From assembly GCA_028693445.1 (NCBI GenBank), contig JAQUVI010000001.1, forward strand, positions 310,001-374,000: a stretch of DNA of 64,000 nt. The letters are read 5' to 3'. This DNA is from Candidatus Absconditabacteria bacterium. Lineage in GTDB: Bacteria > Patescibacteriota > Gracilibacteria > Absconditabacterales > Absconditicoccaceae. Within the stretch, counting starts at the first letter, position 1. The number at the start of each line of letters is the position of its first letter. Position numbers and translations under genes: made by a program. This document shows positions 36,215 to 41,595 of the stretch, piece after piece. The notes under the pieces are model-generated. The model ran no database searches and had not been told where the DNA came from. It saw only the letters and a list, made by a program, of their open reading frames with translations.

Positions 36215-37241
36215 TTATTTATTTTCCAATTTTATTTGTTGTTTTACTAGACGATCAAAATCAGATTCTATACTTTGTATTTTGTTAAATTCTTTGTATT
36301 CGGCAAAAGCTTTATCTTCTGCTTGTTTTCTTGAAATTCATCATTTTCATTCTAATACTTTATATTTATTAAATTGTAAGAAATTGTCTACTGCTTGTGC
36401 TAAATCTTCCATCTTCATAGGTGTATGATTTTCAACTAGGGTTTCTAGATAATCAAAAAATCATGAAACAGATCTTTCAAGTTTCTTAATTTTACTTTCT
36501 TGTAAGTAATTTTTTGCAATGATACTATCTGATTTTAATATTCTTCATTTTGGTGAATTTTTCCAAGTTTTTAGACCCATAAATACTTCTTTAGCATTTG
36601 CATGTTCATATATTATTTCCGATGCTGTCTTTCCTGTGATAGCAAAATGAAACTTGTTTTGTATCATAGCATAAAAATTCTTGGTTATATCTGAATTTGG
36701 ATCATAATCTACACTACATTCTGCAAAAATATCGGTAATCTTTTGATACAATCTTCTTTCACTTGTTCTGATCGAACGAATTCTCTCTAGTAATTCTTGG
36801 AAATAATCTTTTCAGAAATATTTTCCGTTTTTCATTCTTTCATCATCGAGGGAGAATCCTTTGATGATATATTCTTTTAGTCTTTCTGTTGCCCAGATTC
36901 TGAATTGTGTAGCTTGTGATGAATTTACACGATATCCAATAGAAATAATCATATCAAGATTATAAAATTCAATCTCTCTAGAAATATCTCTATCTCATTC
37001 TTTTTGAACTGTTAGAAATTTTCTAATAGTTGAATTTTGCCTTAATTCTCAACTTTCATAAATTTGTTTGATATGATAATTGATTGTTGGTACTTCAACA
37101 CCAAAAAGTTCGGCAATTTTTTTTTGATTCAACCAAAGATTTTCATCGTGTAAAAAGACTTCTACTTTTATGTTTCAATTTGGGGTTGTGTACAGAAGAA
37201 AATTTGTTAATTCATCTTTGATCGATAAAGATTTGTTCATT
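36215..37241 (-). CDS. RhuM-family protein with an apparent frameshift near the N-terminus
   Basis: About 341 residues if one base is skipped. From about residue 15 the frame is a full RhuM-type protein: DENLWLNQKKIAELFGVEVPT (helix-turn-helix-like), YNLDMIISIGYRVNSSQATQF, RIWATERLKEYIIKGFSLDDER, then a Fic/Doc-adjacent-type helical half. The natural start, ATG 37241 (NKSLSIKDELTNF), is in the +1 frame; the two join at an A5 run (37199-37203, plus strand). Removing one base restores the typical RhuM N-terminus. Either a sequencing indel, a pseudogene, or slippage. RhuM proteins occur in pathogenicity and defence islands; function poorly known. A homologue lies at 63217. Confidence 0.75.
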
Positions 37242-37439
37242 ATGTTAAATAAAATATTAAAATGTTTATTCTTTATTTCACAGGGATTATATATCTTTTC
37301 TCTATATTTTCAACCACTTTTATAAATTCCTATTGAAATATGTCAATAAATATGTATACTTAATTTTGTAAAAATTTGCAAAAAAAGGGAATCTGGTTAT
37401 TATTATAGCATACTATTATTTATTTTTTACTGTTTTCTT

Positions 37440-38258
37440 ATGAAACTTAATCCAAAGGCAAATTCTATTCGTAATCTCAACCTTTCTGAACAAAGAAAGG
37501 AAGATATTGAGATGAAACAAGAAATCATTGATCTTCTCAAGACAAAGACAGGATATACAAAAGATATTGAACTTTCAAAAGGGAAAAGAGAAAGACGAAG
37601 TAAAATCAGAGAATTGTCTGGTAATGATCCAGAAAAAATTACATCGTTAAAAGAAACGTTGTATACAGAAGAAGAAAAGAAAGATCTAGATCTTTGTCCT
37701 TTTGCACAACACAAAGGCTACGCAGAACTCTGGAAATCACTTACTCCAGACCAACAAAAGGGGATGAAAGAAAATATAAAAATAACAGCTGATGGAAAAG
37801 TAGAAATGATTAAAATGAAAAAGAAATTTTCTCAGCTTACAGCACAGCATAATGGAAAGGATATTTTTGATGGAAGTCATGTAGATCAGAATTGAAATAC
37901 AGGAACCAAAGGAATAACCTATCTAACAGGTAAAGCAGCTGAGAAAGAATCAAAAAATCAAGGAAAAAAGTTATTAAAAGATAGATCAGAAGTTGAACAA
38001 TTTATCAATTTCTTTCCAGGCGAGAACACAAAAGAGAAAATATTTAATTTTGTCAAGCTATTTGGTCTAGAGAAAGCTGGGTATTGGTATCCTGGTAATA
38101 AGCGATGGGGCGATGTCGGGTCTGTCGGCTATGTCTACATGTCTACTGTTTATGACTATGATGGTGTATTTGAGGTCAAGTGGAGTAGTGATGATGCAGA
38201 TGTAAGTCGAAGCCATCAGGGATTTCCTTCCCCTTTTCTTGCCTTTGAGGACTGCTAA
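37440..38258 (+). CDS. DGR target protein with C-type-lectin-like variable C-terminus
   Basis: 272 residues. The N-terminal about 200 residues are charged and helical with no signal peptide or TM segment (LNPKANSIRNLNLSEQRKED...). The last about 60 residues are encoded by the variable repeat: KAGYWYPGNKRWGDVGSVGY, VFEVKWSSDD and GFPSPFLAFEDC, with the W/G/S pattern of CLec-type DGR targets. Compared with the TR, 21 residues are changed, mostly Asn to Tyr, Ser, Gly, Asp, His or Thr. One TGA codon (near 37894) is read as Gly. Probably a binding protein; the ligand is unknown. A strong terminator lies downstream. Confidence 0.9.
38073..38249 (+). repeat. DGR variable repeat (VR)
   Basis: 177 bases inside the target gene, aligned without gaps to the TR at 38535-38711. 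30 mismatches, all opposite TR adenines (20 A-to-G, 6 A-to-T, 4 A-to-C). The last 27 bases (38223-38249) are identical, pyrimidine-rich and almost adenine-free, matching an initiation-of-mutagenic-homology region. Immediately after it VR has GACTGCTAA where TR has CACTGCTTA. Confidence 0.97.
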
Positions 38259-38349
38259 TCCTGAGCGGAGCGAGGGACTTATCTCTTTTGTCCGCAAAAA
38301 AGTTAGAAAAAAACTTCAAAAGAATATACGACTGTTTCAAAAAAATCGA

Positions 38350-38379
38350 GGGGAATTGCAAGGCAATTCCCCCTTTTTT
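38350..38379 (+). terminator. Intrinsic terminator after the DGR target gene
   Basis: Perfect ten-base stem GGGGAATTGC/GCAATTCCCC with an AAG loop, followed by C and six T residues. Confidence 0.92.
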
Positions 38380-38384
38380 CTATA

Positions 38385-38534
38385 GAGTATTTTAGCCAGA
38401 ATTGATACGCTCTACGGATCTATCAAGCGAGCCTTTTAGCAGTCCAGTCGTACCCTGTTTCTCTACAAAAGATAATAGGAGTAAAAGATGGTATTGTTGG
38501 CTACGACAGTATCACAAAGTTAAGTACGACCACA
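38385..38534 (+). other. DGR spacer upstream of TR, with a possible protein-domain remnant
   Basis: Part of the 500-base gap between target and RT genes. The frame that leads into the TR is open from after TAG 38304 and translates near 38450-38530 to a peptide containing SLQKIIGVKDGIVGYDSITK, which resembles the LQxxLGVxxDGIVGxxT pattern of peptidoglycan-binding (PG_binding_1) domains, then continues in frame into the TR. There is no start codon. It may be the decayed upstream part of an old target paralogue; the TR promoter should also lie here. Confidence 0.4.
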
Positions 38535-38711
38535 AAAGCTGGGTATTGGAATCCTAATAATAAGAAATGGAACAATGTCGGGTCTGTCGGCTATGTAAAC
38601 ATGTCTAATGTAAATGACAATGATAATGTATATGAAATCAAATGGAATAATGATAATGCAAATATAAATCGAAACAATCAGAAATTTCCTTCCCCTTTTC
38701 TTGCCTTTGAG
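38535..38711 (+). ncRNA. DGR template repeat (TR)
   Basis: 177-base non-coding copy of the VR, rich in AAT/AAC codons if read in the target frame (more than 15), which is typical of TR design: adenine-directed mutation of AAY cannot give a stop codon. It lies between the target and RT genes on the same strand, ends 47 bases before the RT start, and is followed by a GC-rich hairpin. Expected to be transcribed and reverse-transcribed with errors at A. Confidence 0.96.
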
Positions 38712-38720
38712 CACTGCTTA

Positions 38721-38738
38721 CCCCGCAAAATCGCGGGG
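38721..38738 (+). other. GC-rich hairpin directly after the TR
   Basis: CCCCGC/GCGGGG stem with a six-base loop, followed by TTTATTTG. It could be part of the TR RNA structure needed for priming, or a weak terminator that limits RT expression. Confidence 0.7.
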
Positions 38739-38758
38739 TTTATTTGTATATACTCTAT

Positions 38759-39874
38759 ATGGATCAATTATTATTTGATATATTCAAAGCATATTATGAT
38801 GCGAGATGTAACAAAAGAAATACGATAAGTCAGCTGGAGTTTGAATTGAATTTTGAACATAGTCTATTTCAGCTTTATGATGAATTAAGTACATGAACAT
38901 ATACTATAGGACAAAGCATTTGTTTTATTATTTGTGACCCAGTCAAAAGAGAAGTCTTTGCAAGCAGTTTCCGTGATCGTATTGTTCATCATCTCATATA
39001 TAACTATATTTATAATTTCTTTGATCGTCATTTTATCCATGATAGTTATAGCTGCAGATTAAATAAATGAACGCATTATGGGATTAAAAGATTAGATTAT
39101 TTTATTAGGTATTGTTCTCAGAATTATAAAAAGGATTGTTATATACTCAAACTGGATATCAAAAGTTTTTTTATGAGTATTGATAAAACAATTCTTAAAC
39201 AGAAAATCACAGAAAAACTAAGTTCTTTTGAATATTCATCTTTGGATAAGAAGCGATTATTTAGTTTATTATATCAGATTATTGATCATGATCCTACACA
39301 GAATTATTTGTTCAAGTGAAATACATCTGATTATGATTGATTACCCAAAGAAAAAAGTTTATTTCATGGGTGAAAAAATAAGTGAATTCCTATTTGAAAT
39401 CTTACAAGTCAGCTATTTGCAAATATCTATTTGGATGATTTTGATAAATTTATGAAATATGAGCTATGAATCAAATATTATGGCAGATATGTAGATGATT
39501 TTGTGATTATTCACCATGATAATGAATATTTGAAATCATTACTTCCTATAATAAAAAGATATCTTACCGAAAAACTACAACTTACTTTACATCCCAATAA
39601 GATCTACCTCCAGCATTATTCCAAATGAGTAAAATTTCTTTGAGCATATCTCAAACCATGGAGAATATATATCCATCGTAGAACATTGGAAAATTTTAAA
39701 AGAAAAATGAAACAGCTTCCTTTGCTTTGAAATAAAAAGGAGGAACTGAATATTATTAATTCTTATCTTTGAATCCTTAGACATGGGAAAAACTTTGTTT
39801 TTAGAAAAAGGATTCTTAGCACATTGTCTGATTTTTCTTTTGATACTAATTTTACTTGCTGATCTATAAAATAA
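38759..39874 (+). CDS. DGR reverse transcriptase
   Basis: 371 residues. Domain order of group II-intron-like RTs without maturase: SSFRDRIVHHLIYNYIYNFF (RT1-2), LKLDIKSFFMSID (RT3, first catalytic Asp), GIPIGNLTSQLFANIYLDDF (RT4; TSQ rather than the SP of introns and retrons marks the DGR clade; residues 209-228), YGRYVDDFVII (RT5; YVDD at 244-247) and KFLGAYLKPW (RT7). Eight or more TGA codons are read as Gly, several at conserved positions, so the gene is adapted to the host code. The stop TAA overlaps the next ATG (TAATG). It should copy TR RNA into adenine-mutated cDNA. Confidence 0.95.
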
Positions 39875-40218
39875 TGGTACTCTACGAACATTTGCCTATT
39901 TACAAAGCGAGTTATGATCTAACTTTGCAATTATTTCATAGTATCAAAAAATTCCCCAAAGAATTTAAATATACACTTGGAGAACAAATCAAGAAAGATT
40001 CTCTGATTTTGATATCAAGTATTTATAAAGCTAATGTTTTAAAAGATAAGAGAAAAGAATCTCTGCAAGAATGTAGGGCATACATTGAAAGTATAAAAGT
40101 ACTGATTAGAATCTCTAAAGATTTACATATATTTTCTCTTGAGAAATTCATAACTATTAGTCAATCAATAGAAACGATATCTAAACAATTGATAGGTTGG
40201 GAAAAATCTGAGAAATAA
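39874..40218 (+). CDS. avd: DGR accessory variability determinant (Avd-like four-helix protein)
   Basis: 114 residues, all helical: YEHLPIYKASYDLTLQLFHS, PKEFKYTLGEQIKKDSL, ESLQECRAYIESIKVLIRIS and FITISQSIETISKQLIGW. This is the pattern of Avd proteins and the related four-helix-bundle family (compare 6187-6543). Avd forms a basic pentameric barrel that binds the RT and TR RNA and is required for retrohoming. ATG overlaps the RT stop, indicating translational coupling. It is downstream of RT here; in the Bordetella phage element it precedes the TR. Confidence 0.9.
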   Translation: MVLYEHLPIYKASYDLTLQLFHSIKKFPKEFKYTLGEQIKKDSLILISSIYKANVLKDKRKESLQECRAYIESIKVLIRISKDLHIFSLEKFITISQSIETISKQLIGWEKSEK

Positions 40219-40249
40219 ATTTCTAAAAAAAATTAATCTAAAATAAAAA

Positions 40250-40450
40250 GGGGGCTTCTTTATTTGAATATTTAAAGTAATCCAAATGGGGATATGTCAT
40301 CTAACGTCCGCCGATGGTACGATGTCCGAAGGATGTCGTGCATCGGCTGTTAGATGACCGAACGTAGTGAGGCGAGGAGCGTAGCGACGAAGTGTATCCC
40401 CAATTTGGATTTTCCTTATTAAATTACATAAAAGAGATGAAGAAGCCCCC
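40250..40450. repeat. Large nested inverted-repeat element
   Basis: Outer arms GGGGGCTTCTT (40250-40260) and AAGAAGCCCCC (40440-40450); middle arms TCCAAATGGGGATA and TATCCCCAATTTGGA; inner arms CATCTAAC/GTTAGATG with GCCGATG/CATCGGC nested. The right interior is rich in CGA/GCG repeats. No ORF. It sits between the convergent Avd (+) and Cys-rich (-) genes and could act as a terminator for both. The left arm recurs at 43336-43403. Confidence 0.8.
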
Positions 40451-40482
40451 AAAAAATTAAATTAAAAAATCTAAATTAAATA

Positions 40483-41595
40483 TTATTGTTCTTGATAGCA
40501 AGTATTGTTTGAATAATTCATTTTATATCCATAATCACAATAACAGGTATTTCATAAACTTGAATCTAAATGTGAATTACTAGGACAACTAACTTTTTCA
40601 CAAGTATTGTTTGAATAATTCATTTTGTATCCATAATCACAATAACAGGTATTTCATAAACTTGAATCTAAATGTGAATTACTAGGACAACTAACTTTTT
40701 CACAAGTATTGTTTGAATAATTCATTTTATATCCATAATCACAATAACAGGTATTTCATAAACTTGAATCTAAATGTGAATTACTAGGACAATTAACTTT
40801 TTCACAAGTATTGTTTGAATAATTCATTTTGTATCCATAATCACAATAACAAGTATCTCATAAAGTGCTTAAATAAGAATTTTCTTTACATCAATTATTG
40901 TTAGAAGATAGGTCTGTATCTGTTTGGTATATTGTGTTTTTAACTGGTTCTTTGATACAAGAAATTTTGTCGTCAGATGTGATATATCAATAGTTACAAA
41001 TACATAATTTGGATGTGCTATTATAAGCTGAATTAATTGGACAATTTATATTATTGTTTTTGTTGGTAGTTGTTGTAGATGATGTATATGTTGTAATATG
41101 CGAATTTGTTGGACAACTTCTAGTATTACTATTTCGAGTAGATGTTCATTTAGTATCTCATTTACATGCACATCGTTTGTCTGATGTTCTATATATTGTT
41201 CATGGATACCAAATATTACATTTTTCATTCATTGTTAATGTCTTTTTTGTATTAGTAGTTTTTTTTGTATTAGTTTTTGTTGGACAACTTCTAGTACTGC
41301 TATTTCGAGTAGATGTTCATCTAGTATCTCATTTACATGCACATCGTTCGTCTGATGTCCTATAAATTGTTCATGGATACCAAATATTACATTTTTCATT
41401 CATTGTTAATGCTTTCGGAGTAATTGTTGGTGTATAATAAGATCATCATCAGCATTTTGCACTTAATAGAGATCAATCACAACAACTATTACCACAAACC
41501 CCACCATGCCAAGAGCAACATCATCTTTCAGCCAAGGAAAATGACATGAAGGAAAATAAAATTAATATTAATATTAGAGATAGCAGGTATTTCAT
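40483..41595 (-). CDS. Secreted cysteine-rich repeat protein
   Basis: 370 residues. Signal peptide about 1-22 (KYLLSLILILILFSFMSFSLA). N-terminal motif RGCCSWHGGVCGNSCCDGS, seen in small CCSxHGG-type secreted domains. Then two 57-residue repeats with CNIWYPGTIYRTSD...RCACKGDT, a Thr/Ser-rich linker, and four C-terminal 34-residue repeats with CPSNSHLDSSLGNTCYCDYG and NYSNNTCEK. Cysteines suggest small disulfide-bonded EGF-like units. Probably surface-exposed adhesin or spacer. Many TGA glycines. Ends in the shared TAATATTTAATTTA 3' sequence. Confidence 0.85.
40500..40906. repeat. Four tandem 102-bp coding repeats
   Basis: The AGTATTGTTTGAATAATTCA block recurs at 40501, 40603, 40705 and 40807, a period of exactly 102 bases (34 codons), nearly identical at the DNA level except the last copy. 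Recent expansion or frequent recombination is likely. Confidence 0.95.
41108..41411. repeat. Tandem 133-bp coding duplication, 171-bp offset
   Basis: 41108-41240 and 41279-41411 are nearly identical (few substitutions), encoding the two 57-residue units of the Cys-rich protein. Confidence 0.9.

What the first reader, a model, noticed from the sequence alone, without database searches (positions are those of the whole stretch)
37440..40218. Complete diversity-generating retroelement in a UGA-glycine bacterium
All four parts are adjacent and co-oriented: target gene with VR, TR, DGR-clade RT (TSQ in motif 4, YVDD) and an Avd-like protein overlapping the RT stop. VR and TR are gap-free over 177 bp with 30 mismatches, 30 of 30 at TR adenines. 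21 codons of the target change amino acid and 4 change silently. DGRs are known in CPR bacteria as a class; this locus, in a recoded host and with target-TR-RT-Avd order, looks worth describing.
Basis: partly seen in the sequence, partly recalled or inferred. Interest (0 to 1): 0.95.

Follow-up and report, generated by a model that had tools for sequence, protein, structure and literature searches.

The report
Self-mutating gene cassette in SR1 bacterium
This is a complete, apparently recently used diversity-generating retroelement, a known kind of cassette that deliberately scrambles one patch of a binding protein, here in a tiny bacterium that reads UGA as glycine; it is a sound new member of a known family rather than a new kind of system.

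Summary
VR (38073-38249) and TR (38535-38711) align without gaps; all 30 mismatches lie at TR adenines (67 of 177 positions; P about 1e-15), changing 21 residues, 4 codons silently. The RT (371 aa, 13 in-frame UGA) has the DGR motif IGNLTSQ and YVDD, best matches the BPP-1 DGR RT among solved structures, and groups with DGR RTs, not with the genome's retron-like RT or group II RTs. Avd is confirmed (Pfam bAvd 7e-17). The target's C-terminal domain is probably a C-type-lectin fold. The lineage is SR1/Absconditabacteria (inferred).

Novelty is lower than claimed: 10 of 49 genomes of the order have this RT, at least four with the same target-TR-RT-Avd layout and adenine-specific variation, and VR-TR-RT is the commonest published order. 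Recoding barely matters: no VR codon became UGA by mutation.

New details: a closed genome of the same genus keeps a diversified target without TR, RT or Avd (a frozen VR; adenine bias p=1e-4); VR and TR differ by one G/C at the homing site, a recurring mark; a terminator-like hairpin sits just after TR; the BPP-1-type cruciform after VR is not evident. Activity was not measured.

The parts
37440..38258 (+). Target gene, 272 aa; helical N-terminal half, C-terminal lectin-like domain with VR; no export signal or membrane segment
38073..38249 (+). Variable region (VR)
   Evidence: 30 differences from TR, all at TR adenines
38222..38255 (+). Invariant 3' end of VR, IMH-like; VR-type G at 38250
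   Evidence: function inferred from BPP-1
38350..38372 (+). Terminator-like hairpin after the target gene
38535..38711 (+). Template repeat (TR); TR-type C at 38712, then shared ACTGC
38720..38739 (+). Terminator-like GC hairpin directly after TR
   Evidence: z -2.8; z -3.2; similar placement in 10 of 14 other loci
38759..39874 (+). Reverse transcriptase, 371 aa, 13 UGA codons, IGNLTSQ and YVDD
39874..40218 (+). Avd accessory protein, 114 aa; ATG overlaps the RT stop by one base
   Evidence: bAvd 7e-17; PHROG Avd 1.1e-20

Best explanation
A cellular, chromosomal diversity-generating retroelement. The TR region is transcribed; RT with Avd copies it into cDNA, misincorporating opposite template adenines; the cDNA replaces VR at the 3' end of the target gene, using the shared 3' end as homing signal, while the single C instead of G in TR's copy of that signal marks TR as donor. 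The result is new versions of the surface of a C-type-lectin-like domain at the target's C terminus. Shown: the anatomy, adenine specificity, RT and Avd families, a single target, and recent use (30 changes at A sites, none at 110 other sites). Inferred from BPP-1: cDNA synthesis, homing and its direction. What the target binds is unknown; as it has no export signal, sensing a ligand inside the cell (a conflict or defence role) seems somewhat likelier than adhesion to a host cell.
For: 30/30 at A; bAvd, Avd PHROG 1.1e-20, RT PHROG 4.5e-100; PDB 8ub7-8ube DGR RT, 1.4e-32; RT in a 100/96-supported group of six RTs of the family, among DGR RTs; same cassette and adenine signature in relatives; top fold matches nearly all C-type-lectin fold; orphan VR adenine bias.
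Against: No read-level or experimental evidence of current homing. The BPP-1-type GC-rich cruciform with a 4-nt GRNA loop after VR is not evident (z -0.5; BPP-1 control z -5.4). No single fold match has E below 0.001.
Confidence: 0.95

Rival explanations
1. A once-working DGR that is now inactive: the VR is a frozen last product and the cassette is decaying.
For: No clear cruciform after VR; a congener has lost the machinery altogether.
Against: RT and Avd open reading frames intact with conserved motifs; no VR-TR difference at 110 non-A sites, whereas the frozen VR of G043 has 7.
Confidence: 0.15
2. The RT is a retron or group II intron RT, and the repeat is an unrelated gene duplication.
For: Weak NCBIfam matches to group II and retron models, all below cut-off.
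Against: 30/30 mismatches at A of one copy; IGxxxSQ motif and tree; Avd present.
Confidence: 0.01
3. The cassette is part of a prophage or other virus and varies a phage receptor-binding protein.
For: Many DGRs are phage-borne; viral contigs hold RTs up to 48% identical.
Against: Neighbours are ordinary chromosomal genes (triosephosphate isomerase and aldehyde dehydrogenase upstream, ClpB downstream, names by sequence inspection); closest RTs are all in cellular genomes of the same family; the TR core is absent from viral contigs.
Confidence: 0.04

Closest known systems
DGR of Bordetella phage BPP-1 (mtd-avd-TR-brt)
   Same: VR and TR with adenine-specific differences, RT with TSQ motif (29% identity), Avd, VR at the target's C terminus, IMH/IMH*-like 3' ends
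   Different: Here cellular; Avd after RT rather than before TR; about 41-47 nt between TR and RT against 144 nt in BPP-1; no clear cruciform after VR; UGA read as Gly
CPR-restricted cellular DGRs (DGR clade 2 of Roux et al. 2021, PMC8144416)
   Same: Cellular DGR in Patescibacteria; target without recognisable transmembrane or other domain
   Different: Not placed on their tree here, so membership in that clade is untested; host reads UGA as Gly
DGRs of the same family found here (G044/UBA5124, G017, G012, G009, G006)
   Same: Same order target-TR-RT-Avd, RT 55-75% identical, adenine-specific TR/VR differences, hairpin after TR
   Different: Different target proteins, e.g. a 1000-aa AAA ATPase fusion in G012; G044's VR and TR are merged on its contig

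Membership tests
Diversity-generating retroelement (DGR) | TR/VR repeat pair differing essentially only at TR adenines | tested here: met
   30/30, P about 1e-15
Diversity-generating retroelement (DGR) | RT of the DGR group with (I/V/L)GxxxSQ in motif 4 and YxDD | tested here: met
   IGNLTSQ, YVDD
Diversity-generating retroelement (DGR) | VR at the 3' end of a target gene | tested here: met
   VR ends two codons before the stop
Diversity-generating retroelement (DGR) | Accessory Avd (common, not universal) | tested here: met
   bAvd 7e-17 over cut-off, PHROG Avd 1.1e-20; NCBIfam Avd 3.4e-15 but 56 bits, below its 80-bit cut-off
Diversity-generating retroelement (DGR) | IMH in VR and a distinguishable IMH* in TR | tested here: met
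   one G/C difference in an otherwise identical 3' end; its role is inferred
Diversity-generating retroelement (DGR) | VR domain with C-type-lectin-type fold (most, not all, DGR targets) | tested here: inconclusive
   confident model (pLDDT 95 for residues 84-272), top matches almost all C-type-lectin fold, but best E only 0.016-0.05
Diversity-generating retroelement (DGR) | DNA hairpin/cruciform after VR (needed for efficient homing in BPP-1; not strictly required, PMC12875486) | tested here: not met
   z -0.5 against -5.4 for BPP-1. This is not treated as a defining feature of all DGRs
Diversity-generating retroelement (DGR) | Mutagenic retrohoming activity | not testable with these tools
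   no reads or experiment
Retron or group II intron RT | RT grouping with retron or group II RTs | tested here: not met
   the genome's separate retron-like RT has TSP/YADD and is far away
DGR clade 2 of Roux et al. 2021 | Placement on the published RT tree | not tested
   reference RT set not available here

The most novel reading that the evidence does not exclude
SR1-type DGRs use a compact priming unit: a terminator-like hairpin directly after TR and a gap of only about 45 nt to the RT gene replace the roughly 140-nt structured spacer of BPP-1, so that the template RNA ends just after TR and primes cDNA synthesis differently.
Probability: 0.15. Interest if true: 0.6.

Novelty: new member of a known kind. 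Interest (0 to 1): 0.38.

Why it matters
It documents DGRs whose RTs carry many reassigned UGA codons across the UGA-glycine SR1 and Gracilibacteria lineages, where standard-code gene calling would break the RT. It also supplies a natural pair: a congener that kept a diversified target but has no machinery. That makes it possible to ask what these reduced, probably host-dependent bacteria diversify and how a variant becomes fixed.

Tried and rejected
(1) That UGA=Gly enlarges the usable sequence space of the DGR: no VR codon had become UGA from a non-UGA TR codon in any pair examined; the chance of a stop-free product at the observed change rate rises only from 0.69 to 0.72. Rejected as important. 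(2) A second target in the genome: the only extra TR match (C1:36547) is chance, in a coiled-coil gene. (3) Rfam search of 37240-40480: nothing. (4) Viral carriage: no viral contig holds the exact TR core. (5) G044, the closest RT: VR and TR are merged into one copy on a 5-kb contig, probably an assembly collapse, so it could not serve as a TR/VR test. (6) Sequence search of target and Avd against PDB gave nothing useful. (7) Paul et al. 2017, the main CPR DGR paper, is not held. (8) No scan of metagenome contigs and no reads were available, so no population variants.

Full report
Observation. VR 38073-38249 and TR 38535-38711 align over 177 bp without gaps; 30 mismatches, all at TR adenines (67 A of 177 bases; P about 1.3e-15), giving 21 amino-acid changes and 4 silent ones. 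After a single G(VR)/C(TR) difference at 38250/38712 the shared ACTGC continues. The target (37440-38258), RT (38759-39874) and Avd (39874-40218, ATG overlapping the RT stop) are co-oriented. There is one TR, one VR and one such RT in the 1.17-Mb genome.

Genetic code. The RT has 13 in-frame UGA. In an alignment with eight homologues, mostly from standard-code hosts, the residues opposite those codons are Gly in 72 of 98 cases. The family is SR1/Absconditabacteria by inference: the 152,178-bp contig of relative G006 has the length of a contig titled 'candidate division SR1 bacterium', and the 192,480-bp contig of G118, in the same class, that of one titled 'Candidatus Gracilibacteria'.

RT and Avd. 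RT: PHROG reverse transcriptase 4.5e-100, best solved relative the 8ub7 series, 1.4e-32 (the BPP-1 DGR RT: it aligns to the same residues as BPP-1 brt), motifs IGNLTSQ and YVDD. In a 53-sequence tree it sits in a 100/96-supported group of six RTs of its own family, five of which lie beside TR/VR pairs (the sixth, G044, has them merged), within a larger set of DGR RTs; group II RTs form their own 100/100 group and the genome's own retron-like RT (C11:417391-418254; TSP, YADD) is far away. The group II branch is long and the tree is unrooted, so deep placement is not claimed. Avd: Pfam bAvd 7e-17, PHROG Avd 1.1e-20; NCBIfam's Avd model scores below its own cut-off.

Target. No Pfam, PHROG or PDB sequence match; no hydrophobic segment. 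The AlphaFold2 model from nine homologues is good (mean pLDDT 85; 95 for residues 84-272 alone). Foldseek matches are individually weak (best E 0.016-0.05) but almost uniformly C-type-lectin fold: human MCL and BDCA2, Bdellovibrio Bd2740 C-terminal domain, Legionella Lcl, phage Fibrobacter-succinogenes-major domains. I treat the lectin-type fold as likely, not proven.

Relatives. RT homologues occur in 10 of 49 genomes of the order and 50 of 353 of the class. Four other genomes of the family show the same target-TR-RT-Avd order with adenine-specific differences (G006 19/19, G009 29/29, G012 14/15, G017 11/12 in the scored stretch), and about 30 loci of the class have such a pair (these counts come from a script that favours A mismatches, with at least 80% at A required, so they show presence, not an unbiased rate). 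The order VR-TR-RT is the commonest published one (PMC3521204) and CPR DGR clades are described (PMC8144416), so this is a new member, not a new kind.

A frozen VR. The closed single-contig genome G043 of the same genus has a target 67-69% identical over 218 residues, but no RT or Avd relative at the thresholds used and no TR. Its VR differs from this window's TR at 19 of 67 A sites and 7 of 110 others (p=1.2e-4); using this window's VR as reference gives no bias (p=0.53), and the conserved stretch upstream shows none towards A. It also carries the VR-type G at the homing-site mark. So it was most likely diversified from a closely similar TR and then separated from the machinery; gene context differs, so loss in place and transfer of the target alone are both open.

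Recoding. UGA as Gly removes one of three possible stop outcomes for AAA codons, but no VR codon in the set arose as UGA by mutation and the computed gain is small.

Flanking structures. A terminator-like hairpin follows the target gene (38350-38372) and a second lies directly after TR (38720-38739). Hairpins with different stems occur just after TR in most near relatives: this locus and 10 of 14 others have z of -2.4 or lower. This fits the published suggestion that template RNA is transcribed separately (PMC3521204). The GC-rich, GRNA-loop cruciform that BPP-1 needs after VR for efficient homing (PMC3240598) is not evident here, though short GC stems follow VR in G009, G012 and G006.

Limits.

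Noticed in passing
G043 C1:53162-53890 (L074:5162-5890): Orphan DGR target with a frozen, adenine-biased VR in a closed congener genome without TR, RT or Avd.
   Followed up: yes
L087:5571-6989, L088:3485-5242, L089:2892-5027, L086:7993-9441, L091:7491-9173, L114:2878-4842: In other recoded families of the class, DGR targets start with a type IV pilin methylation motif (Pfam N_methyl) and most end in a Fib_succ_major domain holding the VR: diversified pilin-like proteins.
   Followed up: partly
G000 C11:417391-418254 (L120), outside the window: The same genome encodes a separate retron-like RT of 306 aa with in-frame UGA codons.
   Followed up: no
L025:8650-11649, L097:9758-11584, L111:737-3547: DGR targets fused to AAA ATPase domains in relatives, as reported for CPR DGRs (PMC10907252).
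   Followed up: partly
L022 (G044 C9, DHYS01000012.1): Closest relative's contig has VR and TR merged into one copy ending with the TR-type C mark; probable assembly collapse.
   Followed up: partly
window 40249-40451: Long inverted repeat (GGGGGCTTCTTTATTT...AAGAAGCCCCC) around a GC-rich core just after avd; part of the core recurs once at C8:50496.
   Followed up: partly
window 40483-41595, - strand: Cys-rich protein with near-identical 102-bp tandem repeats and EGF-like matches, beside the DGR.
   Followed up: no
L048, L097, L099, L108, L110: Several class members have two VRs served by one TR.
   Followed up: no
window 36215-37240, - strand: RhuM-family gene (Pfam Virulence_RhuM 1.8e-106) next to the cassette; absent from the closed congener G043.
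   Followed up: no
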